A program made the position numbers and the translations under genes. A DNA stretch of 56,382 nucleotides. Origin: Thalassotalea sp. GTDB taxonomy: Bacteria > Pseudomonadota > Gammaproteobacteria > Enterobacterales > Alteromonadaceae. Within the stretch, counting starts at the first letter, position 1. Each line of letters starts with the position of its first letter. The notes under the pieces were generated by a model that had not been told where the DNA came from, made no database searches, and saw only the letters and a program-made list of their open reading frames with translations. The stretch covers positions 1 to 56,382 of the forward strand of contig JAQWHD010000048.1 in NCBI GenBank assembly GCA_029237915.1. The letters are read 5' to 3'. Below are positions 22,104 to 39,354 of this stretch, one piece after another.

Positions 22104-23303
22104 ATGGGAGTTATTGAAGGATCAACCGTAGTGCAATTAATTAAATCTTTATTCTGTTTTAAAGGCTCAGATAGTAATGAACGTTTTATCTTATTGAGCC
22201 TAATAAGTTTACTGATCTTCACGTTTTTTAATGAGCTGATCTTAACTAGTATTATTAGTAAATTGGTTTTAACAGTTTTGTTCGCCTTAATTATTTTCTG
22301 CAGCGCCATTCGTCGTTGTCGAGACGCTAACCATTCATCTAAAGCTGCTTGGCTAACAACTATCCTATATGCCATTGCTTTATTTCTTGTTATCGTTTTG
22401 CCATTTTCAACAACCTATAGCGCATTGCTGTTACCACTAGCGGCTACTTTTTATTTATTTGCCCAACCGGCAAAGCAAAAGGTCAATTACATCTTTGGCT
22501 ATAACGGTCCGGTCGATCTATCTGACTTAATTGCCCCAAATTTAAAAGAAACTCAACCAAGATCGCAGCGCATTGAACCTAGCTTATTTGGTTCTGCTTC
22601 TGATAATCAAGTTGATGAATATAATTTCAGCCCTGAATCATCTACCCAAGACGCACATAGTGATCCTTCATATCAACAAGATGTCGGTATGGAGACAAAT
22701 TCTCAACCACAAAGCACTAAGCAATCTACAACTCATGTTGAATCAAGGTCGACCAACCAAATAGCAAACTTGTTGTTCTATTGGTTCTCAGAAAATAAAA
22801 AGTTAATGCTCGTTGTAAGTGTTGTTATCGTATTAAGTGTCGCAATACTTATCGCGATGCCGTTAATTACAACTGCCAGCAATGAAGCACAAAGCAATAC
22901 ACTTACAGATCCTGAAAATTCCCCTGCTCAAGTCGTCACACGAACGGACCTACTTGAAATGCCAGATAACTTTTATTTATTGTTAGATGAAAATAATGGC
23001 CTAATTCTACACTGGCAATCAGATAGCACATCATTAGGTGAAATTTGGTCGCTTAAATCTGCTGCTGGTGATTTAAGCTGCTCTGATATTGAATTTAATA
23101 ATGGTGATAAAATCCGCACTGTAAACGTTGTTGTTGAAGGTATGGGCGATTTTTATGCAAACTTTTCGCCTTTAGATACTGAAGCTATAGTGCAATCTCT
23201 CGCTAGACGTGGCAACTTTAGCTTATGCGATTACAACTTCTCATTAAAAGGCTCACAAAGAGCATTAAACTCAAACCCTGCTTACATTGATTATGCTAAT
23301 TAA
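22104..23303 (+). CDS. Unknown multi-pass membrane protein, DUF805-like N-terminus
   Basis: A 399-residue protein I cannot name. Residues about 25-125 hold three or four membrane helices with AIRRCRDANHSSKAAWLTT, reminiscent of DUF805 (R-x-x-D-x-x-x-S-x-W). A polar, Ser/Gln-rich linker of about 90 residues follows, then a single membrane helix near 232-254 (LMLVVSVVIVLSVAILIAMP). The C-terminal 140 residues, with two Cys (LSCSDIEF and FSLCDYNF), look like a small folded domain on the far side of that helix. A GTG at 22131 with GAAGGA upstream is an alternative start. Confidence 0.6.
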   Translation: MGVIEGSTVVQLIKSLFCFKGSDSNERFILLSLISLLIFTFFNELILTSIISKLVLTVLFALIIFCSAIRRCRDANHSSKAAWLTTILYAIALFLVIVLPFSTTYSALLLPLAATFYLFAQPAKQKVNYIFGYNGPVDLSDLIAPNLKETQPRSQRIEPSLFGSASDNQVDEYNFSPESSTQDAHSDPSYQQDVGMETNSQPQSTKQSTTHVESRSTNQIANLLFYWFSENKKLMLVVSVVIVLSVAILIAMPLITTASNEAQSNTLTDPENSPAQVVTRTDLLEMPDNFYLLLDENNGLILHWQSDSTSLGEIWSLKSAAGDLSCSDIEFNNGDKIRTVNVVVEGMGDFYANFSPLDTEAIVQSLARRGNFSLCDYNFSLKGSQRALNSNPAYIDYAN

Positions 23304-23404
23304 TAAACATACTCAGCCTTTATCAAGACTGAGTTTAAGCATTTTAAATTTCACACCTCTGAAGCCATAGCGCTTCAGTGTTTTCAATTTGATAGGCGAA
23401 CGAT

Positions 23405-24247
23405 ATGTTCAGTTACTACCTGCATACAAAAAATGCTCAACAAGCACTAGATGCTATTAATAAAGGTTTATCTAGTGTCAGGCTATCTACTGATCTAAAT
23501 ATTTCTGAACGTGATTTTTCTATAAATGATCAGCACCTAGTTCTTGATGCAGATAATTCACTTTCAATTGCCGAACTTAAAAAGATGGTTAAGAAGACTC
23601 AGCGAATATTCCTATGTGAGGACGGAGATATAGAGCCGCTTGAAGATCGCAGCGTTGGCTACTACAAATTAGTTCCTACAGATGGTGCACCTTTGTTAGA
23701 AATTAGCGGAGTAAAGATGCACATATCCAAAGGAACCGACCCTTATAAAAGTGCTGCTGAAATGTCGCAAAGAGCCGTGCGCACAGGTGATAAAGTTTTG
23801 GATTGTTGTAGTGGGCTAGGCTATGCCGCTATCGCTGCTCATCGATTAGGAGCTAGTGAAGTCACCACTATAGAGCTAAGCCCACAGGTTATGGGGCTAC
23901 GTGCTCAAAATCCTTGGTCCGAAGATTTAGGTAAAGACGGCATTATACAGCGCCAAGGTAGTAGCTTTGAATTAATCACTACTATGTCTGCGACTTCCTT
24001 TGATTCGGTAATTCATGATCCACCACGTTTTTCTCTAGCCGGTGAACTATATAGTGAAGAGTTTTACCGCGAGATTTACCGAGTGCTACGCCGAGACGGT
24101 CGACTATTTCATTACACTGGAAATCCGCAGATGGTAAAACAAGGAAGCAGCTTTGTTGACGGCGTTATCCGCAGACTTAAAAAAGCGGGTTTTAGAAATA
24201 TAGAAAAGGTCGACCATTTGATGGGCGTGAGTGCGCAAAAAAAATAA
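23405..24247 (+). CDS. SAM-dependent methyltransferase, archaeal-type (COG2521-like)
   Basis: A 280-residue class I methyltransferase. SAM motif I is VLDCCSGLGYAAIAA at 131-145, an acidic TTIELSP follows at 154-160, and the catalytic-type block is IHDPPRFSLAGELYSEEFYR (203-222). The GLGYAAI, NPWSEDL, DPPRFSLAGELYSEEFY and GRLFHYTGNP blocks match, as I recall it, a family described as predicted archaeal methyltransferases. The N-terminal 100 residues are a separate small domain. The substrate is unknown. It is flanked by unrelated genes and has no visible operon partner. Confidence 0.75.
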   Translation: MFSYYLHTKNAQQALDAINKGLSSVRLSTDLNISERDFSINDQHLVLDADNSLSIAELKKMVKKTQRIFLCEDGDIEPLEDRSVGYYKLVPTDGAPLLEISGVKMHISKGTDPYKSAAEMSQRAVRTGDKVLDCCSGLGYAAIAAHRLGASEVTTIELSPQVMGLRAQNPWSEDLGKDGIIQRQGSSFELITTMSATSFDSVIHDPPRFSLAGELYSEEFYREIYRVLRRDGRLFHYTGNPQMVKQGSSFVDGVIRRLKKAGFRNIEKVDHLMGVSAQKK

Positions 24248-24263
24248 ACCTATGGGGCAATAA

Positions 24264-24288
24264 CCACAATTAGTAATGCTAGTTGTGG
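24264..24288. other. hairpin between convergent genes
   Basis: CCACAATTAG and CTAGTTGTGG pair, with one G-U, between the methyltransferase and the EamA transporter. There is no T run, so it is a weak terminator candidate only. Confidence 0.4.
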
Positions 24289-24303
24289 CTACACCTGAAC
24301 TTT

Positions 24304-25269
24304 TTAACGAAGTATGATCCTTTTTAATGCTCGCATATTATCTCTAGATAATATTTTATTACCTAATGCGGTTAGCATTGACCCTATAACAACTAGGCAG
24401 GCGCCAACATAAGCGAGTGTGTTCAACTCTTGTGCTGAAAAGAAGCTAGGCCATATCCCTTCGGCAATCGTTGCAAATAACACAGTTAATAGCGGTGTTA
24501 TTGCCAGTACAGCACTAACTTTCGATGCGGGCCAATACTTTAATGACTCTGCAAATGTGCCATAGGCGATTAAGGTATTTGCGCAACAAAATATCAATAG
24601 CACTAATGACAGCATATCAAGTGACATTACATCGCTTGGTGATGAGGCTGGTAAGAAAAAGACAGCGCTAAGTAGATAGATGCACCACATGATCTGATTC
24701 GAACTAAAATGGTTCAACATCTGCTTTTGTAATATAGCGTAGGTAGCCCAAGTAAATGACGCGCCTATCATTATCACTAACCCAGTTAAAAAATCATCGT
24801 TACTTAAGCTCTCTTGCGAGCTAAATTGTTGATTGAAAAATAACACCAAGCCTGAAATCAACACGATTGAACCAACCATCTGTCCACGAGAGAAGGATTC
24901 TTTTAAAAACAGTACACTACCTATTAACATCATAAATGGCGCCATCTGGATCAACATTTGCGCTGTTTCGCCTGGTACGAAATATAATGAGCTTAAATAC
25001 AATATATAGTTAAGAGAAAGGAATATTGAAGCCAGTAACATTTTCTTTAGCAAATTTTTACTTTGAAAAATACTGGTTGGAATTTTGTTGTTTTTAAAAA
25101 GCATTAAACCAACAAATACTGCTGCAAAGATAAAGCGATACCAAGTAATGGTATAAGAATCCATTAATTGTAAAACACTCACCAAAGCAAGCGGTAGTAG
25201 TCCCCACATAATAGCGGTCGTGAGAGCTAGGATTAAACCTTTAACATTATTATTTTCTGCTGTTGACAT
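24304..25269 (-). CDS. EamA/DMT-superfamily transporter
   Basis: A 321-residue inner-membrane protein with about ten hydrophobic segments in two repeated EamA halves: one from ALTTAIMWGLLPLALV, the second from GLVIMIGASFTWATYAILQK. It is probably a drug/metabolite or amino-acid exporter; the substrate is not predictable. The typical proline and glycine positions, as in GETAQMLIQMAPFMMLIGSV, are present. It is transcribed away from rpsP and convergent with the methyltransferase gene. Confidence 0.85.
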   Translation of the reverse strand: MSTAENNNVKGLILALTTAIMWGLLPLALVSVLQLMDSYTITWYRFIFAAVFVGLMLFKNNKIPTSIFQSKNLLKKMLLASIFLSLNYILYLSSLYFVPGETAQMLIQMAPFMMLIGSVLFLKESFSRGQMVGSIVLISGLVLFFNQQFSSQESLSNDDFLTGLVIMIGASFTWATYAILQKQMLNHFSSNQIMWCIYLLSAVFFLPASSPSDVMSLDMLSLVLLIFCCANTLIAYGTFAESLKYWPASKVSAVLAITPLLTVLFATIAEGIWPSFFSAQELNTLAYVGACLVVIGSMLTALGNKILSRDNMRALKRIILR

Positions 25270-25528
25270 TCTGTTACCACTCTCGTTGCAGTTTACTGCT
25301 AAAATAACTGCTGTATCGCAGATTAATATCCTATATTTGGCGGGATTTTAACCCACAAGTTGGTTTTTAGCTCGCATTTTGTTGATTATTTTTAGCTATC
25401 TTTACCTTAAATCAGTATTAAAGGTTGCTTTTTCTCGGCAAAAGCGTAAAATCTGCGAGCTTTTCTATCCCTTGTGGATTAGAAAGTGTCTGGAAAATTC
25501 GTTTTATAACTTAAATATAGAGGACGGT

Positions 25529-25774
25529 ATGGTTACCATTCGTTTAGCTCGTGGCGGCGCAAAAAAGCGTCCATTTTATCAGGTGGTTGTTGCTGACAGC
25601 CGTAACTCTCGCGATGGTCGTTTCATCGAGAAAGTTGGTTTCTTCAACCCTACTGCACAAGGTCAATCTGAAAAACTTCGTTTAGACGTTGATCGCGTAA
25701 ACCATTGGGTTGGTTTAGGTGCTACATTATCTGATCGTGTAGCTAAGTTAGTTAAAGACGCAACTGCGGCTTAA
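25529..25774 (+). CDS. rpsP: 30S ribosomal protein S16
   Basis: An 81-residue S16, starting [20 protein letters not shown]. An open frame extends 50 codons further upstream, but the ATG at 25529 has GAGG five bases before it and matches the universal S16 N-terminus. It is the first gene of the conserved rpsP-rimM-trmD-rplS operon, and the extended upstream reading is therefore 5' leader. Confidence 0.97.
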
Positions 25775-25808
25775 TTAATTTAGTGAAATTGCGGGAGCAA
25801 AAGTAAAA

Positions 25809-26330
25809 ATGAAAAAAGAAGTCACCCTTGGAAAAATCGGTGCTGTTTACGGCATCAAAGGTTGGTTGAAAATTCATTCCTTTACAGATGATCCTCAGGC
25901 AATTTTTGACTATTCACCTTGGGTTATTACCTTAGGTGGAAAAAAGCAAACAGTAACAGTAACTGAATGGCGTAAACACAGTAGTAGTTTAATTGCCAAA
26001 TTTGCTGACATTAACGACCGCACCGATGCCCAATTAAGAACTGGTGCTGAAATTGTGGTTGAGAGTGATGTATTGCCAGAATTACCGGATGGTGAGTTTT
26101 ACTGGCGAGATCTGATCGGGATGGATGTGGTAAACACCCAAGGCTATAGCTTTGGTAAAGTTACTGACATCATGGAAACCGGCTCTAATGATGTACTGGT
26201 TGTTAAAGCCAACCCTAATGATGGGTTTGGTAAAAAAGAAAGGTTAATTCCTTATATAGATGAACAAGTGATCCATAACGTATCGCTTGATTCAAAACAA
26301 ATTGACGTGGATTGGGATCCAGGTTTCTAA
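25809..26330 (+). CDS. rimM: 16S rRNA processing protein RimM
   Basis: A 173-residue protein starting [20 protein letters not shown], the RimM N-terminal domain (G-x-I-x-x-x-x-G-I-K-G). The second half is a PRC-barrel domain ([20 protein letters not shown]). RimM binds ribosomal protein S19 in the 30S head during maturation. It is the second gene of the rpsP operon, 34 bases after rpsP and 4 bases before trmD. Confidence 0.96.
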
Positions 26331-26334
26331 CTCA

Positions 26335-27081
26335 ATGGATAACAGCAAAATGAGGATAGAGGTGATAAGCCTTTTTCCAGAAATGTTTACTGCTATCACT
26401 GAGTCTGGAGTGACAGGAAGAGCGATTCGTAATGGGTTAATTGAATTCCAAACTAGGAATCCAAGAGACTTTACCCAAGATAAGCATCGTACCGTCGATG
26501 ATCGCCCTTATGGCGGTGGTCCGGGAATGCTTATGATGGTGCAACCATTACGGGATGCCATTAACGCAGCAAAGAAATCTGCTGGCGAAGATGCGCATGT
26601 GATCTACTTATCACCTCAGGGACGAAAGCTTGACCAAACGGGTGTACGTGAATTATCCACTCATAAATCTCTGATTTTAATTGCAGGGCGTTATGAAGGC
26701 ATAGACGAAAGATTAATCGAGTCGGATATCGACGAAGAATGGTCTATCGGCGATTTTGTGTTAACTGGCGGTGAATTACCGGCAATGACCTTAATTGATG
26801 CAGTGGCTAGATTTATCCCTGGTGTATTAGGGCATAATCAATCAGCTGAACAGGATTCATTTTCTGACGGTTTGCTCGATTGTCCACATTACACTAGACC
26901 AGAAGTTCTGGATGATAAATCGGTGCCGAGTGTTTTGCTTAGTGGTAATCACAAAAATATACGCGAATGGCGCATGCAACAGTCATTAGAAAGAACTTGG
27001 AAACGACGTCCAGAGTTACTAACTAACCTAGCTCTGACTGCCGAGCAGGAAAAAATGCTGAAGCTGATAAAGCAGAAGTAA
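26335..27081 (+). CDS. trmD: tRNA (guanine-37-N1)-methyltransferase
   Basis: A 248-residue SPOUT enzyme that methylates G37 of tRNAs to keep the reading frame. Family blocks: [47 protein letters not shown] (trefoil-knot SAM site) and [18 protein letters not shown] longer frame runs back to 26287 inside rimM; I chose the ATG at 26335, just after the rimM stop. ATG 26350 is also possible (MRIEV). Neither has a strong SD, so translation may be coupled to rimM. Confidence 0.94.
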
Positions 27082-27126
27082 TTGTCTTGTTAACGTTGCA
27101 GTATACTCTAGGAATAAAGGTGTATT

Positions 27127-27477
27127 ATGAGTAATATCATTAATCAGCTCGAACAAGAGCAAATGAAAACTGACGTACCAGCGTTTGCCCCTGGTGATAC
27201 TTTAGTTGTTAAAGTTAAAGTAAAAGAGGGTGACAAAGAACGTCTTCAAGCTTTTGAAGGTGTTGTAATCGCTAAGAAAAACCGCGGATTGCATTCTGCT
27301 TTTACTGTTCGTAAAATCTCGAACGGTGAAGGTGTAGAACGTGTATTCCAGACACATAGCCCAATGGTTGCTGAAATTTCAGTTAAACGTCGTGGTGATG
27401 TACGTCAAGCTAAACTTTACTATTTACGTGAACTTTCTGGTAAGAAAGCACGTATCAAGGAAAAGTTGGGTAAGTAA
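27127..27477 (+). CDS. rplS: 50S ribosomal protein L19
   Basis: A 116-residue L19 with the typical [20 protein letters not shown] and [20 protein letters not shown] blocks. It lies at the 30S-50S interface in the ribosome. It is the last gene of the rpsP operon, with a strong terminator 16 bases later. Confidence 0.97.
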
Positions 27478-27492
27478 TTTATTACTTGTTCG

Positions 27493-27525
27493 AAAAAAGG
27501 TCTGCAATTGCAGGCCTTTTTTTTT
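27493..27525 (+). terminator. rpsP-rplS operon terminator
   Basis: AAAAAAGGTCTGCA and TGCAGGCCTTTTTTTTT form a hairpin (one G-U) with a nine-T run, just after rplS. Confidence 0.92.
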
Positions 27526-27548
27526 GCGACCAAGGATGGTCGTAATCT

Positions 27549-27589
27549 GATACCGCGGGAGCGAAGTATCGGTATCTCACAGAATGACG
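27549..27589. repeat. CGTCAT-type palindromic repeat on the - strand
   Basis: GATACCG (27549-27555) pairs with CGGTATC (27570-27576); ATGACG (the complement of CGTCAT) follows at 27584-27589. It has the same plan as the four hairpins at 608-1096 with a different stem and loop. Confidence 0.65.
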
Positions 27590-27631
27590 ATTTTTATCTC
27601 ATCCATGAGAAAATCGCATACATTACATCGT

Positions 27632-27687
27632 GTAAATATAGGTATGTAAAAATAGGTATGTAAATATAGGTATGTAAATATAGGTAT
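27632..27687. repeat. 14-base tandem repeat, four units
   Basis: Four units of GTAAATATAGGTAT (the second has one change, GTAAAAATAGGTAT) run head to tail and lead straight into the dispersed repeat at 27684. Within the 408-base gap 27478-27885 I see only the terminator, these repeats, and hairpins such as ACGACATTCATGTCGT near 27830; no gene. Confidence 0.9.
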
Positions 27688-27723
27688 GCAAATTTGGCCA
27701 TAGAGGGCGTTAAATTTGTAGCC
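27684..27723. repeat. dispersed repeat GCAAATTTGGCC..., copy 2
   Basis: GGTATGCAAATTTGGCCATA followed by GAGGGCGTTAAATTTGTAGC. It is the second copy of the unit at 14175-14214, again preceded by GGTAT. Confidence 0.8.
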
Positions 27724-27885
27724 CTTAATAGCCTTATGCCGATAGAGCAGGGACAGAATTTCTAACATTCTCCCTATAAACGCTGCTTTCATTACGTCCT
27801 CGGTAATAGCTCCGGCATTACTCTAATGAACGACATTCATGTCGTAATGTAAATTTGCGAAGTTTCGGTAGTCGATGCGTTATAA

Positions 27886-28344
27886 CTAATACATGATCTC
27901 AACATGTCTATCTGTGGTTGGGTCAGCCCCTTCTCTATCTTCTGCGCCTTTGCCCATACTTACTGCAACTAAGTGCTCTTCACTAATACCTGACTCCACT
28001 AAATAAACCCATACAGATGTAGCACGTTGTTTTGCTAAACCATGGTTATACTCTTCATCACCAACTTGGTCGGTATGGCCTTGTAACACTATTTTACCTT
28101 GCTTAATGATTTTCATCGCATCGATGTGAGAATCTAAAACTAGCTTACTTTCAGCTGATAGTTGCGATGAATTAAAATCAAAGTAGACAAACCGCTGTAA
28201 TTCAATTTCAACTTTTTGTTGTTCTGGCTCTGAGAGTATTTCAGCATCTAAGTGCGGTTTGATCACGTTCGCACTCTTAAAGTTAGCTTGATGCTGACAG
28301 GCCGATAGGAACGTTAACGCACTGAGAATGAATAATTTTTTCAT
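27886..28344 (-). CDS. OmpA-family outer-membrane lipoprotein
   Basis: A 152-residue protein. The signal peptide ends in lipobox LSAC at about 13-16, so it should be lipid-anchored. Residues about 50-150 form an OmpA-like peptidoglycan-binding domain: VYFDFNSSQLSAES, VLQGHTDQVGDEEYNHGLAK and a closing TTDRHVEIMY. The Asp and Arg in the TD-x-x-G and R positions fit diaminopimelate binding. It probably links the outer membrane to the cell wall. It is divergent from acs. Confidence 0.87.
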   Translation of the reverse strand: MKKLFILSALTFLSACQHQANFKSANVIKPHLDAEILSEPEQQKVEIELQRFVYFDFNSSQLSAESKLVLDSHIDAMKIIKQGKIVLQGHTDQVGDEEYNHGLAKQRATSVWVYLVESGISEEHLVAVSMGKGAEDREGADPTTDRHVEIMY

Positions 28345-28464
28345 GAAATGAGACCAAAGTTTGTAGGCTTATTATTAAGTTATAACATGTTATCGCATTT
28401 TTTCACTATTTTCATTACATCAACTACTAGGCTTCAATAATAGTATGTTTTTTTTGTTAAAAGG

Positions 28465-28484
28465 TGATGACAGCGCTGTCATCA
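28465..28484. promoter_or_regulatory. 20-base perfect palindrome between the OmpA-like gene and acs
   Basis: TGATGACAGCGCTGTCATCA is a perfect, uninterrupted palindrome, GC-richer than its surroundings, 153 bases before acs and 121 before the divergent lipoprotein gene. It looks like a regulator binding site. A shorter palindrome, ACAAAATTTTGT, lies at 28573-28584. Confidence 0.6.
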
Positions 28485-28636
28485 TGTGTTTTTATATGTA
28501 TAACAACTTATTAAGATGACAAACAATTATAATATTGTTAGGTTTTATGGTTATGTAAAATACATAGTGCAAACAAAATTTTGTAAAACCAAATAATAAT
28601 AATAAAAATTTAATACAAATTTAGGCGACAAGAGTA

Positions 28637-30580
28637 ATGAATCCATTAGAAAAATTTTATCCAATTAAAGATGCAGCTAAAGCAAAGACCTATATCGACG
28701 AAGATAAGTACAAAGCACTTTATAAGCAATCTATCGAGCAACCAGACGAGTTTTGGGGACAACAGGCTACAGAATTTCTTGATTGGGACAAACCTTTCAA
28801 TAGCGTGCGCAATGTCGACTTTAAAAATGCCGATGTAGAATGGTTTCAAGGTGGACAATTAAATGTCAGCTATAACTGTATTGACCGTCATCTGGCCACT
28901 CGCGGTGAACAAACGGCAATTATATTTGAAGGTGATGAAGTCGATGATACGCGTAATATAACGTATAACGAATTGCATCAGCAGGTATGTAAGTTTGCCA
29001 ATGTATTGAAATCTCGCGGTGTTAAAAAAGGCGATCGTGTTTGTATTTACATGCCGATGATCCCTGAAGTTGGCTTTGCTATGCTTGCTTGTGCTCGTCT
29101 TGGCGCGGTGCATTCTGTTGTTTTTGGTGGTTTTTCTGCAGAATCAATTAAATCAAGAATATTAGATGCTGATTGCCAGGTTGTAATTACAGCGGACCAA
29201 AGTGTGCGAGGTGGTAAAAAGTTCCCACTAAAAGCTAACGTTGATAAAGCCATTAGTGAATGTGAAAATGTGCATAGTGTTATTGTGGTGAAGCGCACTG
29301 GAGCTGACGTTGCATGGAATGATGCTATCGATATTGATTACCATACTGCGATGCAGCAAGCATCCGCAGAATGCGAACCTGTAATGGTTAATGCCGAAGA
29401 CCCGTTATTTATTCTTTATACTTCGGGCTCTACAGGTACACCAAAAGGTGTTCAGCACAGTACCGGTGGTTATCTTTTATATGCTGCAATGACACACAAA
29501 TACGTATTTGATTACCGTGATGGTGATATCTACTGGTGTACAGCCGATGCAGGCTGGATCACCGGTCATAGTTATATATTCTATGGTCCATTAGCAAACG
29601 GGGCAACTACGTTAGTCTTTGAAGGCGTACCTACTTATCCTGATGCTGGACGTTGTTGGGATATGGTTGAACGTCATAAGATCAATGTGTTCTATACCGC
29701 ACCAACGGCTATTCGTGCATTAATGAGCATAGGCGATGATTTCCCTAACAGTAAGGATTTATCTTCTCTACGTCTGTTGGGGAGTGTTGGTGAGCCGATT
29801 AACCCTGAAGCCTGGCATTGGTACTACGAGATAATTGGTAACAGCAATTGTCCTATTGTCGATACCTGGTGGCAAACCGAAACAGGTGGCATATTGATTA
29901 CCTCACTACCTGGCTCCGCAGGTATGAAACCTGGCGCTGCAGGCTTACCATTTTTTGGCGTAGAGCCGGTGATTATCGACAAAGATAATGGTAGTGAGTT
30001 AGATGGTGAAGCTCGTGGACCATTATTAATGAAAAATAGCTGGCCGGGACAAATGACTACGGTTTATGGCGACCATGCAAGATCGCACCTAACTTACTTT
30101 AGTCAATTCGAAGATTACTATTACACTGGTGATGGCGCGCAACGTGATAGCGATGGCTATTACTGGATCTTAGGTCGTATAGATGACGTGCTTAATGTTT
30201 CAGGTCATCGTTTAGGTACTGCTGAAATTGAAAGTGCGTTAGTGCTTCATCCTAAAATCTCTGAAGCTGCTGTCGTTGGTTATCCTCATGATGTTAAAGG
30301 TCAGGGGGTATATGCCTATGTAACACTTATGCATGATGAAGTAGAAAGTGAAGAACTAATTCTTGAGTTAAAAGCTCTAGTTGCCAAAGAGTTAGGTAGT
30401 TTCTCAAAACCTGATCTTATTCAATGGGCTCCTGGATTACCAAAAACTCGCTCGGGTAAAATTATGCGCCGTATTTTACGAAAAATAGCAGAAAATGATA
30501 TTGGCACATTAGGTGATACTTCAACTTTAGCTGATCCAAGTGTTGTTGATGAACTAATTGAACACCGTTTACTGCGTTAA
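28637..30580 (+). CDS. acs: Acetyl-CoA synthetase
   Basis: A 647-residue AMP-forming acetate-CoA ligase. Motifs: P-loop-like [20 protein letters not shown], the [20 protein letters not shown] hinge region, and [16 protein letters not shown], whose Lys in SGK is the conserved acetylation-regulated catalytic residue. It makes acetyl-CoA from acetate in the cytosol. It is preceded by AGGCGACAAGAG and a 292-base divergent region with the 28465 palindrome. A hairpin terminator follows. Confidence 0.97.
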
Positions 30581-30610
30581 ATAAACTGAAAATTAACGTC
30601 GAATCTATTT

Positions 30611-30635
30611 AAAGGAGCTTAATTGCTCCTTTTTA
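30611..30635 (+). terminator. acs terminator
   Basis: AAAGGAGC and GCTCCTTTTT pair around TTAATT, 30 bases after the acs stop. Confidence 0.8.
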
Positions 30636-30747
30636 CATAACTAATATCATAAAGGCCTAAACTTTTACTTGCATAGGTTAATTAAAAGCTGATATTAATA
30701 AGGTACTCAAGCGAGTTTTTCAATTATAACGGTACTAATTCGAAGTC

Positions 30748-30804
30748 ATGCAACTTAATTACACCACATTCCGATATTATCGCTTTACCCATCTTTATTG
30801 GTAA
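30748..30804 (+). CDS. Tyr/Phe-rich leader peptide of the aroF-tyrA operon
   Basis: An 18-codon reading frame, MQLNYTTFRYYRFTHLYW, with four Tyr, two Phe and one Trp, lies 79 bases upstream of aroF. Seven aromatic residues in 18 directly before aromatic biosynthesis genes is the signature of a leader peptide. Its stop codon lies in the first arm of a hairpin (30800-30815), the same layout as pheL in this window. No consensus SD is obvious (GAAG lies close to the ATG). The Tyr-Tyr pair is at codons 10-11. Not in E. coli, where aroF-tyrA is controlled by TyrR repression. Confidence 0.75.
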   Translation: MQLNYTTFRYYRFTHLYW

Positions 30805-30815
30805 GTCTACTTACC
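30800..30815 (+). promoter_or_regulatory. attenuator-type hairpin at the leader stop codon
   Basis: GGTAAG and CTTACC form a six-base-pair hairpin with loop TCTA; TAA of the leader peptide is inside the first arm. GGTAAGTCT (30800-30808) can instead pair with GGACTTACT (30875-30883), which covers the aroF ribosome site, with seven Watson-Crick and two G-U pairs. No U-rich terminator follows, so control of translation is more likely than of termination. The rest of the 303-base gap 30581-30883 holds the acs terminator and presumably the promoter. Confidence 0.6.
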
Positions 30816-30883
30816 GATCCCTTGCTTTACCTGTACAACTTACTTTCAACATTCTTTATAACAAAATCAAAATCGGACTTACT

Positions 30884-31969
30884 ATGTCAACAGCAACTGA
30901 AAATGGAAAACTAAACGATATTCATGTTAATTCGGAAGAAGTATTAATTACTCCAAATGAATTACGTAATAAATTACCTCTTAGCGAACAAGATAGACAA
31001 TTTGTTTTATCTTCAAGAAGTACAATCGCTAAAATTATTCATAAACAAGACCCTCGCTTATTAGTGATTTCAGGCCCTTGTTCGGTACATGATGTTGAAG
31101 CTGCAAAGGAATATGGTCGTAAGCTGAAAACTCTTCAAGAAAAATACCAAGATACCCTTTATGTGGTAATGCGTGTTTATTTTGAAAAGCCAAGAACCAC
31201 CGTTGGTTGGAAAGGCTTAATTAATGACCCTCATATGGATGGTAGCTTTGATGTTACCAAAGGTCTAGAAACCGCTCGTGAATTACTTATCTATTTAACT
31301 GAGTTAGGTTTACCGCTTGCTACTGAAGCACTTGACCCTATTTCACCTCAGTATTTAGCTGAGTTATTTAGTTGGTCAGCAATTGGCGCTCGAACTACTG
31401 AGTCACAAACTCACCGTGAAATGGCTAGTGGTTTATCTATGCCAATAGGCTTTAAAAATGGCACAAATGGTAGTTTAGATGTAGCAATCAATGCGATGGA
31501 GTCAGCAGCGTCTTCGCATCGTTTTATGGGGATTAATCGTGACGGTCAAGTATCACTAATAAAAACATCGGGTAACCCAGATGGTCACGTAATTTTACGT
31601 GGTGGCAAACAGCCTAATTATGATTCAGTTAATGTATCAGTATGTGAACAAAGCCTTGAAAAAGCTGGCTTAGAACAAGCTTTAGTTATAGATTGTAGCC
31701 ATGCAAATTCAAGTAAAGACCATAACCGTCAACCTTTAGTTGCTGAGAATGTGGTGAATCAGATTTGTGAAGGTAATAAATCTATCATAGGCATTATGCT
31801 AGAAAGCCATTTAAATGCCGGAAACCAAAGCTCTAACTTACCTAAAGATGAGTTAGCTTATGGTGTTTCAGTAACGGATGCATGTATCGATTGGCAGGCT
31901 ACAGAGCAAGTGTTTGCGAAAGCCGCGGCCAAGTTGGTAAGTGTTTTACCTAAGCGAATTTCAGCGTAA
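30884..31969 (+). CDS. aroF: 3-deoxy-7-phosphoheptulonate (DAHP) synthase, AroF type
   Basis: A 361-residue class I DAHP synthase, which condenses phosphoenolpyruvate and erythrose 4-phosphate as the first step of the shikimate pathway. Motifs: RLLVISGPCSVHD, YFEKPRTTVGWKGLINDPHM, SWSAIGARTTESQTHREMAS, GHVILRGGKQPNY and IDCSHANSSKDH. It most resembles the Tyr-sensitive isozyme AroF and is followed 39 bases later by tyrA, as in E. coli. Upstream are a Tyr-rich leader and a hairpin that can mask its GGA ribosome site. Confidence 0.94.
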   Translation: MSTATENGKLNDIHVNSEEVLITPNELRNKLPLSEQDRQFVLSSRSTIAKIIHKQDPRLLVISGPCSVHDVEAAKEYGRKLKTLQEKYQDTLYVVMRVYFEKPRTTVGWKGLINDPHMDGSFDVTKGLETARELLIYLTELGLPLATEALDPISPQYLAELFSWSAIGARTTESQTHREMASGLSMPIGFKNGTNGSLDVAINAMESAASSHRFMGINRDGQVSLIKTSGNPDGHVILRGGKQPNYDSVNVSVCEQSLEKAGLEQALVIDCSHANSSKDHNRQPLVAENVVNQICEGNKSIIGIMLESHLNAGNQSSNLPKDELAYGVSVTDACIDWQATEQVFAKAAAKLVSVLPKRISA

Positions 31970-32008
31970 TACGATTAATAATTAAAGAACAATTGAAAAT
32001 GAGAATCG

Positions 32009-33136
32009 ATGAAAGATTTTGAGCAAAAATTACAGCAATGCCGTACTGAAATTGATGAAATTGATCAAAAGTTAGTACAGTTATTAGCAACGCGTAGGGA
32101 AGTAACCGCTCGAGTTGGCGACATTAAGAGCAAAGTAGGTATGCCTATTTTTGCTCCTGAGCGTGAACAAATCTTATTAACTAAGCTTAAGCAACAAGGG
32201 GCTAAATTAAATCTTTCAACCCAACTTGTTGAAGATTTGTTCCGTCGGATCATGCGAGACTCATATTCAAGCCAAGATGAAAAAGGCTATCAATGCATTA
32301 ATAAAAGTGTAGGGAAAGTCGTTGTTATTGGTGGTAAAGGGCAGTTAGGCAGTGTTTTTGTTGATCTATTCAACCGTTCGAATTATCAAGTAGATGTGCT
32401 TGAAAAAGATGATTGGCAAAATAGTGAGCAAATACTGGCTGGTGCAGGACTCGTTATTGTTGCAGTGCCTATAACTTTAACAAATACAACAATTGAAAAA
32501 CTATCTTCATTATCTAAAGATTGTATTCTAGCCGATATAACGAGCATTAAAGACAGCCCTCTTAAAGCTATGCTAGACGTGCATAGTGGCCCGGTTGTCG
32601 GTTTACACCCTATGTTTGGCCCTGATGTTACAGGCTTAATTAAGCAAACTATTATTGTTTGTGAAGGTCGTGATAAAGAAAAGTATCAATGGCTATTAGA
32701 GCAGTTTTCAGTATGGGGCGCTTTAAATTATCAAGTAACAGCCGTTGAGCATGACCGAGCTATGGCTATGGTACAAGTAATGCGTCATTTTTCAACTGTA
32801 TGTTATGGCTACCACCTTATGCAGGAAAATGTTGAACTTGAGCAATTGTTAGCAATGAGCTCACCAATTTATCGCTTAGAGCTAGCTATGGTTGGACGTT
32901 TGTTTGCACAAGACCCTAACTTGTACGCAGATATTATCTATTCCAACCCTGAAAATGTGGTAATGATGAAACGCTTTGCAGAGCGATTTGTCGAGCTTCT
33001 AAATTTAGTTGAAAGCGGTGAAAAACTAGATTTTATTGGTAAGTTTAATCAAGTTGCTAACTGGTTTGGTGATGATGCCCAAAGTTTCTTACAAGAGTCT
33101 AAAGTTTTATTGGAGAAAGCACGTGAGCCAAAGTAA
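32009..33136 (+). CDS. tyrA: Chorismate mutase / prephenate dehydrogenase
   Basis: A 375-residue fusion. Residues about 1-90 are an AroQ-type chorismate mutase ([20 protein letters not shown] with ERE-type residues further on). From about 100 comes the NAD-dependent prephenate dehydrogenase, with [14 protein letters not shown] as the dinucleotide site and [10 protein letters not shown] with the catalytic-type His. It makes 4-hydroxyphenylpyruvate for tyrosine. It is the second gene after aroF; its end overlaps the next gene by 14 bases. Confidence 0.95.
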
Positions 33137-33662
33137 ACGCAAAGTTGTGATGAAATATTTAGTTAAATACAAAGTTTTATTAATGATAATCGCATTTGGC
33201 TTATGGATTTTAGCCGCTGTAATGTCATCTAAAGCACATGCTGGCGAGGATGTTATTGGTAATATTAGCAAGCATCAGTTACTCGATCATTACCCTACCT
33301 TCAGCACTAACTATGATGATTACACCTTATCTGATGATGAGGTTGATGCAGTTAAACAGTTGCCAGATAGCGTTTCAATAAAAGTATTTTTTGGTACTTG
33401 GTGTCACGATAGTGAACGAGAACTCCCTCGTTTGTTAAAAGCTTATAAGAAAAGTGATGTTGAAATAGAAATGATATCTTTAGACATGAATAAATCAGAG
33501 CCAGAGGGGAGAGCAGTGCAAAACAAAATTAAATATACGCCAACTTTTATTGTTTATAATAACAATATCGAAGTTGGACGTATTGTTGAGCAACCTGAAG
33601 TTTCTTTAGCTGAAGATATTTTCGCTTTCTATAAAGAAAGTAAAAAACAAAAAGCACCATAA
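33123..33662 (+). CDS. Membrane-anchored thioredoxin-fold protein with a CxxS motif
   Basis: A 179-residue protein. It has an N-terminal membrane helix or signal peptide ([19 protein letters not shown], ending AHAG), then a thioredoxin-like domain with [14 protein letters not shown] and the cis-Pro block YTPTFIVY. The active site is C-H-D-S, so only one cysteine is present: a monothiol or isomerase-like type. I chose the GTG at 33123 because GGAG lies 7 bases upstream; this overlaps tyrA. ATG 33150 is the alternative. Position suggests cotranscription with tyrA; the functional link is unclear. Confidence 0.72.
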
Positions 33663-33691
33663 TATACAAAGACTGATGCCTTGCACTTTAC

Positions 33692-34045
33692 CTAGTGTAA
33701 GGATTTTAACGTGGATAGTACATCTGTACGCAGGTGTTCAATAGACAGCATAATGTTTTCACTATTCACTTTCTGCTTGTCCATATCGTGCCAATTCTCA
33801 TTCCAAACTCTGTGTAATTCATTAGCACTAGCTTGTGTTTCCGTTGAACCTGTTTGCGTTAAATCTTGTATGTAGAGTACGTAACTCCAGCCTTTTATTG
33901 GATCTTTTTTCTCCTCAGTATCTCCATAATAGGCATAATCAAAGAGTAGCTGTAATTCAGCGAGTGACATTAAAATTTCAAACGAGGAGGTACGGACATT
34001 GCGATTAAATTCGGTTTGCTCATTACGCCAAGTGTTATAAGACAA
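33692..34045 (-). CDS. Conserved-looking hypothetical protein, N-terminus uncertain
   Basis: A 117-residue reading from a TTG. It is mostly helical (SFEILMSLAELQLLFDYAYYG) with a C-terminal SENIMLSIEHLRTDVL. The same frame stays open upstream to 34108 and encodes a hydrophobic helix, TIKNNTIALISIIIAILSLS, which looks like a real N-terminal anchor. No ATG, GTG or TTG precedes that helix in frame; only ATT (34096) is available. So the true start may be ATT, or the 5' end is frameshifted. The function is unknown. Confidence 0.55.
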   Translation of the reverse strand: MSYNTWRNEQTEFNRNVRTSSFEILMSLAELQLLFDYAYYGDTEEKKDPIKGWSYVLYIQDLTQTGSTETQASANELHRVWNENWHDMDKQKVNSENIMLSIEHLRTDVLSTLKSLH

Positions 34046-34141
34046 ACTTAATATAGCAATAATTATGCTTATTAATGCAATCGTATTATTTTTAATTGTA
34101 AAACGAGGCTAGTTTTAGAGTTCTTACTGTTGTCCAATTGC

Positions 34142-34187
34142 TCACCTAAACTTAATCTTTACTGATTTAATCGTTAAGTTTAGGTGA
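34142..34187. repeat. 14-base perfect inverted repeat
   Basis: TCACCTAAACTTAA (34142-34155) and TTAAGTTTAGGTGA (34174-34187) are perfect arms 18 bases apart, located between the stop of the next gene on - and the start of the hypothetical gene. No T run follows on either strand, so it is not a classical terminator. Confidence 0.75.
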
Positions 34188-34202
34188 TAAATCGACGTTT
34201 GA

Positions 34203-34910
34203 TTAGTTAGGTTTTTTCTCTATTGCATTCTCATAATGGATATCAGCTAAGCTAATAATGGCTTTAATTAAAGAGTCGGTAATATTGGTACCAATAAAAT
34301 TGGCATCTATAGGGGCATCTCTGCCTATTGCTGCCAAAGCCAAATTTGGTATCTCTATTGTTAAAACCTCACCATTAACCGCTTGCAAATCTACAGTTAA
34401 GGTCAAGTTAGTTGCATTAATGCTAAGTATTTGCATTTTAGTTGCTGGCGCAGTTTTAGAGCTAGATTTTTTCTTCAGTTTAAATTCTTCAGGTGTGTAG
34501 CTATCAATATAATTGAATTGGCTTTGAATTTGCTGTGTAATTTGTTTGAAATTATTATCTCCATCAGCGCTGAATGTAATGTTAGCGTGCAACTTATCAA
34601 AATTTACGGATTCAACGATAATTACTGGTGCATTAATTGTTGATGTATCAGCCTTTACTCTAATTTTTTTAATTGATAATGCATTTTCACTAGAATGAGT
34701 GTCTGAAATTGTGAAATTCTCTAGCGTGATATCACCATGCTCTAACGCTAAAGTAACCTGTTTAACATCAACCTGCTGTTTAGTGATTAGAGAAGCTTGG
34801 GTTATTACTTGTGAACGTAAAAAGCCAGTTAAATCGGTTGCTGCTAAATACCAAAGAGCAGCACCAAAAAATATTAATAAGCTTGCAGCGAGAATGGCAA
34901 GTTTGTTCAT
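34203..34910 (-). CDS. AsmA/DUF748-like periplasmic protein with N-terminal anchor
   Basis: A 235-residue protein with one N-terminal membrane helix (LAILAASLLIFFGAALWYLA) and a beta-rich remainder. The repeated pattern of short strands (VDVKQVTLALEHGDITLENFTI and later SINATNLTLTVDLQAVNGEV) resembles AsmA-like or DUF748 proteins, which act on the periplasmic side in lipid or envelope homeostasis. A Lys/Ser stretch (KLKKKSSSKT) interrupts it near 145. The family is a guess by pattern; the function is unknown. It is divergent from the RND operon. Confidence 0.6.
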   Translation of the reverse strand: MNKLAILAASLLIFFGAALWYLAATDLTGFLRSQVITQASLITKQQVDVKQVTLALEHGDITLENFTISDTHSSENALSIKKIRVKADTSTINAPVIIVESVNFDKLHANITFSADGDNNFKQITQQIQSQFNYIDSYTPEEFKLKKKSSSKTAPATKMQILSINATNLTLTVDLQAVNGEVLTIEIPNLALAAIGRDAPIDANFIGTNITDSLIKAIISLADIHYENAIEKKPN

Positions 34911-35082
34911 AGATGATCCATTTATAAAGTTAAAGCGTTAGATGATGCAAGTATACCTCGAGTTAAACTCTCTAGGTAAGTTTAATTTAACCTGTAAATA
35001 TTGTAATTCAACGTTTATTTATGTTTTCAATCAGTGAACTACTGTATATTTACGACAAAATTTTTATAATGATAATTACCCT

Positions 35083-36144
35083 ATGGCACAATCTAAATCT
35101 TCTCGTTTACCTTTACTTTTTTTATCAGCTCTCCTTATTGGTTTAGTCGCTTATGTACAGTGGCCCAAAACCGATAGTCAGAAAAGTAGATTCCAAAGAG
35201 TTGTAATGGTAAAGACCGCACCTGTTATTGATGCTGAATTCAGTGATGAATTTGAAGCTTTAGGCACTACCATCGCAAACGAAGCCGTCATTATTACCTC
35301 ACAACGTTCTGATATCGTTGAAGGCGTTTTTTTTAATGATGGGGATGTCGTTAAAAAGGGTCAAATATTAGTTGAGTTACGCAAAGAAGCTGAGCAAGCG
35401 AACGTCCGTGAGTTAAAGGCTAACCTTAAAGAATCAAGTGCGCAGTTGACTCGTTATAATGAATTAAGAAAACAAGATGTTGCATCTGTTGCGCAACTGG
35501 AAGAGCAGCAAGCTAAAACTGAATCGATTCAAGCACGCCTTAAAAATTCACAAGCTCAATTAGCGAAGCTTTCAATTAAAGCGCCATTTGATGGACAGCT
35601 TGGGTTTCGCAATGTGAGTGTTGGCTCATCGGTAAAAAATGGCGACGTGATCACAAGTCTTGACGACCTCAGTATGGTTAAAGTTGACTTTTTCATTCCT
35701 GAGCAATATTTGTCTACTATTAATGTGAAACAATCTATAAATGCTCGTAACGTTGCTTATCCTGACGTTGTTTTTAAGGGGGTTGTAAGTAGTATATCAC
35801 CGCGATTAGATACTAAGACACGGATGATTAAAGTTAGAGCGTTAATACCTAACAAAGAAAGTAAGTTACGCCCAGGTATGCTAATGGCAATTACCATAAA
35901 ACGTAAAGTAGAACACGTATTACAATTACCTGAAAGTGCAATAATACCATTTGAAGACAGTCATTTTGTGTTTGTTAACAAAGACGGAGTTGCCGTTCGT
36001 ACACCTATTATCATTGGCCGTCGTAAGCCGGGAATTGTTGAGGTTATATCAGGAATTGAAGAAGGTACATCGGTAGTAACAGAGGGAGCATTAAAGCTTA
36101 GAAATGGCTCAAGTATTGCCGTTAAAACTGAGGGGCAGAAGTAG
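35083..36144 (+). CDS. RND efflux periplasmic adaptor subunit
   Basis: A 353-residue membrane fusion protein of the AcrA/MexH type. It has an N-terminal helix (LLFLSALLIGLVAYV), a lipoyl/barrel-sandwich half FFNDGDVVKKGQILVEL, a coiled-coil hairpin about 105-150 (ELKANLKESSAQLTRYNELR), and the returning KAPFDGQLGFRNVSVG. It should bridge the inner-membrane pump to a TolC-like channel, which is not encoded here. It overlaps the pump gene by one base (TAGTG). Confidence 0.9.
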   Translation: MAQSKSSRLPLLFLSALLIGLVAYVQWPKTDSQKSRFQRVVMVKTAPVIDAEFSDEFEALGTTIANEAVIITSQRSDIVEGVFFNDGDVVKKGQILVELRKEAEQANVRELKANLKESSAQLTRYNELRKQDVASVAQLEEQQAKTESIQARLKNSQAQLAKLSIKAPFDGQLGFRNVSVGSSVKNGDVITSLDDLSMVKVDFFIPEQYLSTINVKQSINARNVAYPDVVFKGVVSSISPRLDTKTRMIKVRALIPNKESKLRPGMLMAITIKRKVEHVLQLPESAIIPFEDSHFVFVNKDGVAVRTPIIIGRRKPGIVEVISGIEEGTSVVTEGALKLRNGSSIAVKTEGQK

Positions 36145-39100
36145 TGATATTATCTGATATTTCAGTTAAACGCCCGGTTTTTGCCACGGTATTAAACTTA
36201 TTAATTGTGACTTTCGGTATTGCTGCATTCTTGATGCTGCCTTTGCGAGAATATCCAGATACAGATAAACCTGTTGTATCTGTTTCGACTAAATACTCAG
36301 GCGCTTCAGCCGCTATTGTTGAATCTAAAATCACTCAAGTTCTAGAAGATAGAATTAGCGGTGTTGAAGGTATAAAACACATAACATCGAGCTCACGCGA
36401 TGGCCGCTCTAGTATTTCTATTGAGTTTGAACTTAGCCGCGATATCGATGGCGCAGCTAATGATATACGTGACAAAATATCTTCTGTGTTAAGGCGTTTA
36501 CCTGAGCAGGCAGAACCACCAGAAGTGCAAAAGGCAGGTGATGATGGAGATGTTATTGTCTGGTTTAGCCTGCGCTCGGAGGTTTTTAATACTTTAGAAT
36601 TAACCGACTATGCCAATCGTTATATTGTCGACAGATTTGCCACGGTTAATGGTGTCTCAGAAATTTACCTTGGTGGCGGTCGCACTTATGTAATGAAGCT
36701 TACTTTAAATCGTGAAGCTATGGCTGCACGAAATATTACTGTAAGTGACATAGAGAAGGTGTTAAGAGCCGAAAATGTTGAGTTACCCGCTGGTGAAGTT
36801 AAATCTATTGACCGAAAATTTAATGTTAGGGTTACTAGAAGCTATAAAACTGCAGAAGACTTCGCTTCTATGGTCATTGCTCGTGGCGCCGATAACTCGC
36901 TAGTGAGGCTCGACGATATTGCTAACGTAGAAGTTACCGCCGAAGATGAAGAAAACATGTTCCGCAGTAATGGCTACAACATGGTAGGCCTTGGTATTAT
37001 CAAACAATCTAAGGCGAACACCATCGATGTGGTGAAAGCTGCGCAAAAAGAAATGGAAGAAGTTAAGCTAAGCTTGCCTGCCGGCACGGAGATCATCCCA
37101 AGTTACGACTCATCTATTTTCATTAAAGACTCTATCGATGAAGTTTATAACACCTTAGGCATAGCTATGCTGATGGTGGTGTTAGTTATTTTTATCTTTT
37201 TAGGTAATGTTAAGGCTACGCTTATACCTGCGGTAACTGTACCTGTAGCCTTGATCGGTTCAATGATCGTAATGTCAGCGTTAGGTTACTCAATTAACTT
37301 ATTAACCTTATTGGCATTAGTATTAGCAATTGGTTTAGTTGTAGATGACTCTATCGTCGTACTTGAGAATATTTATCGCCGAATTGAAAATGGTGAACCG
37401 CCATTACTTGCAGCCTATAATGGTGGACGCGAAGTTGCTTTTGCCGTAGTTGCAACCACATTAGTGCTTGTGTCTGTATTTGTACCTTTAGTCTTCATTT
37501 CTGGCGATATCGGTCGCTTATTTACCGAATTTGCCGTAGCAATTTCGGCTGCTGTAATTTTTTCAAGTATTACCGCATTGTCGCTAACTCCAATGATGTG
37601 CTCGAAATTATTAAAGCATAGGGAGCGCAGTTCTTCATTTGGTCAATTACTCGATAAAGGTTTTGCTCGTCTAGAGAAATCTTATGCTAATGCGCTTAAC
37701 TCATCGATTAAACAGCCCATGATGATAGTTGTGGTTATGGCATTAGCATTTGCGAGTGTTTGGATTATAGGTAAAAAACTTCCTAGTGAATATGCACCTA
37801 AAGAAGACCGAGGTGGTGCTTTCTTAATGATGTCGAGTGCTGAAGGCTCTAGCTATGAGCGTAATGTTGCAAATATGAGCATTATTGAAGAAAAATTAAT
37901 GAAATATTATGATGACGGTTCTTTAGAGCGCGTAATGGTAAGAGTTCCTGGCTTTAGAGGCGCAGGTGGTGTTGCTATTCTCGGCTTACCTGACTGGCAA
38001 GACCGTACTATTTCTACGCAAGATTTTATTGGTAAATTTAATAACGAACTCAAAGATGTAACAGATGCTCGGGCTTTTATTATGTCTAGAGGTGGTTTGG
38101 GCGGTCGCTCTGGTGGCGGTAAACCTATCGGATTCGTTCTTCAGGGGAACAGCTACGAAGAATTGGCTCGCTGGCGTAATATTATTTTAGAAAAAGCTCA
38201 AGACAATCCAAAAATCATTGGCTTAGAAGGGGACTACAAAGAAACTTACCCGCAACTTTTAGTTAAAATTAATCGTGAACGAGCTTCTGATTTAGGTGTT
38301 TCTGTTGGCGATATTGGTAGAACCTTAGAAACTATGCTGGGTAAACGCCGAGTGACAACTTACATCGAGCGTGGTGAAGAGTACGATGTGTTGCTCGAAG
38401 GTGATGAAGATGAATATAAAAGCCCAAGTAGCTTAGAAAATATTTATGTTCGTTCAACTACAACGATGCAATTAATTCCTTTATCTAATTTAATTAGCTT
38501 TGAAGAAAATGCTACGGCAACTAATTTAAATCGATTTAATCGCCTACGCAGTATCACTCTTTCAGGAAGCATTACTCAAGATTACACCTTAGGTGAAGCG
38601 CTTGATTATTTAAATGATATTGTAAAAAATGAACTGCCGATGGAAGCGAATGTTGCTTATACAGGGGCTTCTGAAAAGCTTAAGGACTCAAGCAGTTCAA
38701 TGTTATTAGTATTTGCTTTAGCATTACTTATTACCTATTTAGTATTAGCTGCACAATTTGAAAGCTTTATTCATCCATTTGTTATATTAATCACAGTACC
38801 GTTAGCGCTTGTTGGCGCGGTTGCCGGTTTGTATTTAAGTGGCATGACATTAAATATCTACAGCCAAATTGGTATCGTTATGCTCATAGGTTTAGCAGCT
38901 AAAAATGGTATTTTAATTGTTGAATTTGCCAACCAACTTCGAGATTCAGGCGAAGAGTTTACTCAAGCTATTATTAAAGGCTCTCAGCAACGTTTACGTC
39001 CGATTGTAATGACGTCATTCACAACGATTATGAGCTCTATACCGCTAGTGTTAGCGACAGGTCCTGGCTCTGAGTCGAGAATGGTTATAGGTACGGTAAT

Positions 39101-39336: not shown

Positions 39337-39354
39337 ATTTTTATAGTATATAAG

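What the first reader, a model, noticed from the sequence alone, without database searches (positions are those of the whole stretch)
30748..30883. Tyrosine-rich leader peptide before aroF-tyrA, with a stem that can mask the aroF ribosome site
An 18-codon frame with four Tyr, two Phe and one Trp ends in a hairpin arm, the same layout as pheL in this window. Seen: GGTAAGTCT (30800-30808) pairs either with CTTACC next to it or with GGACTTACT (30875-30883) over the aroF SD. No U-rich terminator is visible. Known: in E. coli aroF-tyrA is controlled by TyrR repression. Inference: Tyr-tRNA shortage stalls a ribosome on the leader, shifting the pairing and opening aroF translation. I see no TyrR box here.
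Basis: partly seen in the sequence, partly recalled or inferred. Interest (0 to 1): 0.8.

Follow-up and report, generated by a model that had tools for sequence, protein, structure and literature searches.

The report
Tyrosine-sensing leader before aroF-tyrA
A short tyrosine-rich reading frame and a hairpin that holds its stop codon are conserved in front of the tyrosine-making genes of a group of marine bacteria, which suggests that a stalled ribosome senses tyrosine there, in place of or beside the usual protein repressor.

Summary
The leader is real. Window 30748-30804 encodes MQLNYTTFRYYRFTHLYW*; 13 of 15 genus genomes carry a full leader ending RYYRx(T/S)(Y/H)LY(W/Y)*. Tyr-rich leaders stand in 56 of 121 aroF upstreams read, in 14 genera. 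The leader's stop codon lies in the 5' arm of a hairpin with compensatory change (covariation 0.385 against 0.205, 0 of 500 shuffles). A clear intrinsic terminator is lacking in most, unlike pheL in the same window. From the Tyr codons to the aroF ribosome site the RNA is C-rich and G-poor. TyrR boxes, found in most related genera tested, are at chance level in all 15 genus members, which keep a TyrR-type protein. Best reading: Tyr-tRNA-controlled ribosome stalling on the leader derepresses aroF-tyrA. Whether the OFF step is SD masking, Rho termination or both is open; nothing was tested at the bench.

The parts
30748..30804 (+). leader ORF MQLNYTTFRYYRFTHLYW, stop TAA
   Evidence: full leader in 13 of 15 genus genomes
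30772..30801 (+). conserved core from CGA-TAT-TAT-CGC on: tandem Tyr codons, G-poor, synonymous sites conserved
30770..30775 (+). TCCGAT, strand that can mask the aroF SD
30797..30818 (+). hairpin with the leader stop codon in its 5' arm
   Evidence: covariation
30819..30871 (+). C-rich, G-poor stretch between hairpin and SD (rut-like composition)
30872..30877 (+). ATCGGA, aroF SD region, complement of 30770-30775
30875..30883 (+).
30884..31969 (+). aroF, DAHP synthase
   Evidence: NF009395, TIGR00034
32009..33136 (+). tyrA, chorismate mutase/prephenate dehydrogenase
   Evidence: NF008400

Best explanation
The leader is a ribosome-mediated tyrosine attenuator of aroF-tyrA. When Tyr-tRNA is short the ribosome stalls at the tandem Tyr codons (RYY) and covers the Tyr-codon strand; when Tyr is plentiful it runs on to the stop codon and leaves, and the Tyr-codon strand becomes naked. 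The naked strand turns aroF-tyrA off. In this genus the most direct route is pairing of its UCCGAU with the aroF SD AUCGGA (translational attenuation). Shown by comparison: the leader, its Tyr codons, the stop hairpin, the SD complementarity in this genus. Inferred: translation of the leader, stalling, the direction of control, the OFF step and the role of the hairpin. My estimates: Tyr-codon sensing of some kind 0.8; SD masking as the main OFF step in this genus about 0.4.
For: Leader with tandem Tyr codons in 13 of 15 genus genomes, these codons invariant in the 13. Tyr-rich leaders in 56 of 121 aroF upstreams, 14 genera. Stop codon in the 5' arm of a stem of 5 or more pairs in 50 of 56, 19.8 expected from shuffles. 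On 32 aligned hairpins, 35 cells changed on both sides against 16.0 in shuffles (0 of 500 as many), including the stop codon's third base in two rows. A covariance model of core and hairpin gave 24 hits in 118 genomes, 22 of them just upstream of aroF; 15 of these 22 are genomes the model was built from, 7 are not. SD complementarity p 0.007 or less in 10 of 14 genus members. A modelled stall at YY opens the SD in 9 of 14 while a ribosome at the stop does not. TyrR boxes at chance level in 15 of 15 genus members although all 15 keep a TyrR-type protein.
Against: No expression, ribosome-profiling or mutant data. SD opening depends on settings: at 15 C with a six-base SD only 5 of 14 genus members reach 4 of 40 shuffles or fewer, and the window does not (0.34 to 0.40, 5 of 40). 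Own leader:SD pairs in the genus are no better than pairs swapped within it (-7.69 against -7.81 kcal/mol), so there is no sign of coevolution inside the genus. The pairing is not significant in L087, L092, L094, L095, and a YY footprint has little mean effect in most other genera, where the leader must act otherwise. The number of hairpin pairs with a two-sided change is not exceptional by itself (5 against 3.8, 76 of 500 shuffles). Two of 15 genus members lack a full leader. The leader's own SD looks weak (by eye).
Confidence: 0.55

Rival explanations
1. Rho-dependent attenuation. The Tyr-codon strand and the stretch behind the hairpin form a split Rho loading site (C-rich, G-poor) with the small stop hairpin between its halves. 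A ribosome stalled at the Tyr codons covers the first half and blocks Rho; a ribosome that finishes exposes it and transcription stops before or early in aroF. It could act alone in most genera and beside SD masking in this one.
For: C 0.269, G 0.034 from Tyr codons to hairpin (C over G in 54 of 54 measured) and C 0.178, G 0.067 from hairpin to SD (54 of 56), against C 0.125, G 0.135 in the 40 bases before the leader and C 0.141, G 0.137 in 23 of 24 g39 upstreams, which lack the leader; C at least twice G behind the hairpin in 43 of 56 against 6 of 42 upstreams of other ORFs of the window. Synonymous sites of the core are conserved, e.g. the rare Leu codon CTC 17 of 17 in g8. Precedents: orf34-speF (PMC6386406, abstract) and mdtU-mdtJI (PMC7815308, passages).
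Against: No Rho data. A G-poor leader also keeps RNA unstructured for other reasons. 23 other family upstreams without this leader show a milder C excess (0.223 to 0.183, C over G in 17).
Confidence: 0.3
2. The conserved Arg-Tyr-Tyr peptide is an arrest peptide that senses free tyrosine (TnaC-like), not Tyr-tRNA supply.
For: Arg before the Tyr pair is nearly invariant (13 of 13 in g1, 14 of 17 in g8); a different short ORF ending RYR* or RYY* stands before aroF in four genomes of three other genera.
Against: CGA gives way to CAA or CTA; in the g22/g26/g35/g40/g42 group the aromatic run varies (YYYY, FYYY, YYFYY and others); synonymous sites are conserved too, which points to codons or RNA.
Confidence: 0.08
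3. The stop hairpin is itself a weak intrinsic terminator.
For: The scan flags it; 10 of 50 stop hairpins have a T-rich tail by one of two loose measures, e.g. TTTTTTATAC in L091 of this genus.
Against: 40 of 50 have no such tail; 10 of 13 genus members have a tail that begins with C; stems are AT-rich. A ribosome that reaches the stop would melt it, giving read-through when Tyr is plentiful, the wrong sense for this operon.
Confidence: 0.05
4. No regulation: ORF and hairpin are by-products of AT-rich sequence.
For: 15 Tyr-rich short ORFs in the window by the same loose test; fold z-score -0.52.
Against: Conservation over 14 genera, compensatory changes, position before aroF.
Confidence: 0.02

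Closest known systems
pheL-pheA and trpL-trpE attenuators (gammaproteobacteria)
   Same: Leader peptide rich in the pathway's end product before a biosynthetic operon; a pheL of this design is in this very window.
   Different: No stem with a long U-run and no terminator/antiterminator pair was found behind this leader in the window.
C. glutamicum aroR-aroF attenuator
   Same: Leader peptide (Phe-Tyr-Phe) before a DAHP synthase gene, ribosome stalling (review PMC11802643, passages).
   Different: Unrelated actinobacterium; according to that review it answers to Phe and not to Tyr; this leader is dominated by Tyr codons.
Salmonella orf34-speF
   Same: Upstream ORF with two consecutive cognate codons; its translation counters Rho termination and unfolds a structure over the RBS (PMC6386406, abstract and outline).
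   Different: Polyamine gene and arginine; no sequence relation tested.
TyrR control of aroF-tyrA
   Same: Same operon, same effector amino acid; PMC5343134 (passages) gives TyrR control of aroF-tyrA in most lineages it analysed.
   Different: Protein acting on DNA; its boxes are at chance level before aroF in all 15 genus members.
Proposed Tyr-tRNA attenuator at E. coli/Shewanella aroF
   Same: Same idea for the same gene: table 3 of PMC2659441 lists S. oneidensis aroF as 'Attenuator sensing tyr-tRNA', citing Camakaris 1980 on E. coli; PMC8632094 also calls it hypothesized.
   Different: No Tyr leader peptide is described in the passages seen; no leader resembling this one was found in the two Shewanella loci L027 and L044.

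Membership tests
pheL/trpL-type transcription attenuator | leader ORF with clustered codons of the pathway's end product | tested here: met
pheL/trpL-type transcription attenuator | intrinsic terminator (GC stem plus U-run) between leader and first gene | tested here: not met
   in the window the only scan hit is the AT-rich stop hairpin with tail CCCTTGCTTT; 40 of 50 stop hairpins lack a T-rich tail
pheL/trpL-type transcription attenuator | matches a curated leader family | tested here: not met
   no Rfam leader at gathering in the window (it misses pheL too); nothing at aroF up to E 5 in 20000-40000
translational attenuator (SD masking) | leader strand complementary to the SD of the next gene, conserved | tested here: inconclusive
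   10 of 14 in the genus; modelled opening 9 of 14 but weaker at 15 C; little in most other genera
Rho-dependent uORF attenuator | C-rich, G-poor RNA overlapping or following the uORF | tested here: met
Rho-dependent uORF attenuator | termination depends on Rho | not testable with these tools
   needs bicyclomycin or a rho mutant
TyrR regulon | TyrR box TGTAAAN6TTTACA before aroF | tested here: not met
   15 of 15 genus members at chance level; 10 to 12 of 12 in most other genera of the group

The most novel reading that the evidence does not exclude
A third aromatic attenuator, for tyrosine, that works without an intrinsic terminator: the Tyr-codon strand itself is the regulatory RNA, masked by a stalled ribosome and otherwise either pairing with the aroF SD or loading Rho. 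It arose in this bacterial group beside TyrR control and then stood in for TyrR boxes in several lineages.
Probability: 0.45. Interest if true: 0.75.

Novelty: new variant of a known kind. Interest (0 to 1): 0.62.

Why it matters
In E. coli the Phe and Trp operons have textbook leader-peptide attenuators while aroF-tyrA is left to the TyrR protein. A conserved Tyr-codon leader before aroF-tyrA would fill that gap, shows how a repressor and an RNA switch may replace each other at one promoter, and offers a compact system to test attenuation without an intrinsic terminator.

Tried and rejected
Rejected: chance ORF; the stop-arm:SD switch as the conserved mechanism; SD masking as a mechanism common to all genera; a TyrR box at about 30832 (TGTACAACTTACTTTCAA, 9 of 12, chance level); the element before other genes: the two model hits away from aroF, G046 (E 0.0017) and G095 (E 0.0056), lie in protein-coding frames.

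Corrections and dropped rows. L108 was cut out wrongly (its contig is short), so miss its leader; one search replaces it by the correct stretch L121 and gives 71 of 101 upstreams passing the Tyr filter, 56 kept. The 15 left out, by eye: L138, L154, L159, L171 (g39), L166, L170 (g47) and L174 as unrelated frames; L123, L129, L130, L137 (g14) because only a TTG or a distant GTG starts them; L087, L139, L144, L103 as truncated. Alignment A1 holds 32 distinct of 33 rows; g8 (17), g49, g2, L098-L100 and L121 are not in it. A2 was misaligned and not used. R1 was built from 25 of the 28 pieces printed; it misses G015 and G035, whose leaders are L135 and L172. Tree labels were set by hand: L007 'both' without a located start codon, L103 'both' though truncated, L009 'box' though only at chance level, L016 and L035 'none' though they have boxes (12 and 11 of 12).

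The papers held are open access only; Panina 2001 and Vitreschak 2004, which may discuss aroF, could not be read. Searches made. The accession TIGR04381 and the TyrR consensus were recalled; the first was borne out by its E. coli control hit.

Full report
The observation. The frame 30748-30804 reads MQLNYTTFRYYRFTHLYW. Its stop codon is in the 5' arm of a nine-pair hairpin, 30797-30818. The genes behind it are aroF and tyrA. Two further DAHP synthase genes lie elsewhere in the genome, at 50 and 51% identity.

Is it more than chance? By composition alone it is not remarkable: 15 short ORFs of the window, this one included, have four or more Tyr in their last 18 residues. By conservation it is. 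Of 15 genus genomes 13 carry a full leader with the tail RYYRx(T/S)(Y/H)LY(W/Y); one has a truncated MHYQLVHFRYYN (L087) and one has none (L097). The first residues vary; RYYR, the Leu and the Tyr after it do not. In the wider GTDB family I read 121 distinct aroF upstreams, out of 288 genomes with a match: 101 among the best matches, plus 20 chosen to test the boundary. Of the 101, 71 have an ORF passing a Tyr filter and 56, in 14 genera, were kept (which corrects one wrongly cut locus). The 20 gave two filter hits that do not resemble this leader. Among 80 loci of named genomes similar leaders appear in L004, L005, L006 and L018, all of this group, and a remoter one in L047, an Alteromonas (MKNRESYRCPPYYHYYW).

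The stop hairpin. In 50 of the 56 the stop codon is paired in the 5' arm of a stem of five or more pairs; shuffled downstream sequence gives 19.8, and 15 of 42 stops of long ORFs in the window pass the same loose test. Mean fold energy is -7.0 against -3.3 kcal/mol. On 32 distinct hairpins from outside genus g8, 83.1% of cells are paired (72.4 in shuffles), 35 cells show changes on both sides (16.0; 0 of 500 as high), the covariation score is 0.385 (0.205; 0 of 500), and sliding the partner by one to three columns destroys the signal. The count of pairs with a two-sided change, 5 of 8, is not exceptional (76 of 500). The stop codon itself covaries: UAG for UAA comes with C for U opposite in two rows.

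Where else? A covariance model of core and hairpin (R1) gave 24 hits in 118 family genomes, one per genome. By the coordinates, 22 lie just upstream of aroF; 15 of these genomes supplied rows of the model, 7 did not. The other two lie in protein-coding frames. Two genomes with leaders, G015 and G035, were missed.

How the SD could be masked. In the other 12 genus members p is 0.08 or more; L105 of g13 has 0.03. The helix kept in the genus is UCCGAU, the end of the Phe codon, Arg and the start of Tyr, with AUCGGA of the aroF SD: p 0.007 or less in 10 of 14, and 0.027 in L111 of g4. Genus SDs pair with genus leaders at -7.7 to -7.8 kcal/mol on average, whether own or swapped, and with leaders of other genera at -3.8. 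With a footprint of 28 bases on the YY codons SD accessibility rises by 0.17 to 0.42 in 9 of 14 (2 or fewer of 25 shuffles as high), and not with the footprint on the stop. The limits: at 15 C and with a six-base SD the window goes from 0.34 to 0.40 (5 of 40 shuffles as high) and only 5 of 14 reach 4 of 40 or fewer. Outside the genus the YY footprint has a clear effect in g4 (0.22, one genome) and in single members of g8 (L126), g26 and g35, with group means of 0.13 or less elsewhere and about zero in g8 (0.03, 17 genomes), g31, g14 and g22; in g26 a ribosome at the stop opens the SD as well.

What the leaders share is composition. From the Tyr codons to the hairpin C is 0.269 and G 0.034, C over G in 54 of 54 measured; from hairpin to SD 0.178 and 0.067, 54 of 56; the 40 bases before the leader show no bias, 0.125 and 0.135. 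23 of 24 g39 upstreams, without the leader, show none either (0.141, 0.137); 23 upstreams of other family genera show a mild one (0.223, 0.183). Synonymous positions of the core are conserved: CTC, 59 of 1,457 Leu codons in long ORFs of the window, is used in 17 of 17 g8 leaders; CGA and CGC in 13 of 13 in the genus. C-rich, G-poor, unstructured RNA is what Rho loads on (PMC7815308, passages). Salmonella orf34-speF is a known case where translation of an upstream ORF with tandem cognate codons bears on both Rho termination and RBS masking (PMC6386406, abstract). I therefore hold Rho as a serious rival or partner.

A terminator? The scan flags the stop hairpin, and 10 of 50 stop hairpins have a T-rich tail by one of two loose measures, among them L091 of this genus; 40 have none. 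pheL in this window, MNNSMTTFKFTFFTG at 41505-41458 on the minus strand, is followed by GCCTCC-GGAGG and a run of T, the classical design. The aroF leader of this genome is not.

TyrR. Boxes matching 10 to 12 of 12 positions, usually as a pair 23 bases apart, stand before aroF in most genera of the group, with or without the leader. They are at chance level in 15 of 15 genus members, in 3 of 3 g28, in L098-L100 and in g2, also in both g41 and in some g39 members. All 15 genus members keep a TyrR-type protein. On an AroF tree of 44 rows the group with the leader is a supported clade (100/98). Its neighbours L014, L015, L019 and L022, and the outer L016 and L035, have boxes and no leader of this kind, so the box looks older. 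By inspection boxes are lost in three places (this genus, L104, L098-L100) and the leader in the g39 group and L102. This reads as an RNA switch added beside a repressor, each later dispensable.

Literature. The passages seen say that TyrR controls aroF-tyrA in most lineages analysed (PMC5343134), that C. glutamicum aroR-aroF answers to Phe (PMC11802643), that a uORF motif lies before aroF in Acholeplasma (PMC8632094), and that a Tyr-tRNA attenuator was once proposed for E. coli aroF (PMC2659441 table 3, PMC8632094). I found no description of this leader in searches, which cover open-access papers only.

Verdict. A tyrosine-codon leader attenuator of aroF-tyrA, well supported by comparison, untested at the bench, with its last step undecided between SD masking and Rho.

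Noticed in passing
L192, L199, L204, L208 (upstream of aroF): Genera g52, g6 and g15 carry a different short ORF ending in KTSRYR* (three) or KTARYY* (one), starting at or near the TyrR box and followed by a hairpin (by eye); one or two Tyr only, so perhaps an arrest peptide.
   Followed up: partly
genus g8 loci among L106-L168, after the stop hairpin: A second hairpin with apparently compensating changes follows the stop hairpin in many g8 sequences (by eye).
   Followed up: no
L098, L099, L100: The loop of the stop hairpin holds an insert with its own hairpin (AAAGCC..GGCTTT in L098); the outer stem GTAAGC/GCTTAC is kept.
   Followed up: no
L123, L129, L130, L137 (g14): TTCGATATTATC is kept before aroF although the frame FRYYH* or FRYYP* has only a TTG or distant GTG start: RNA motif without ORF, or a rare start codon.
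   Followed up: no
window 46807-48327: A second TyrR-type regulator (HTH_TypR domain, 63.7 bits) lies in the window, beside the stronger match on contig 46.
   Followed up: no
window 41505-41397 (minus): Classical-looking pheL attenuator before pheA with a stem and run of T; Rfam gives no hit there at gathering score.
   Followed up: partly
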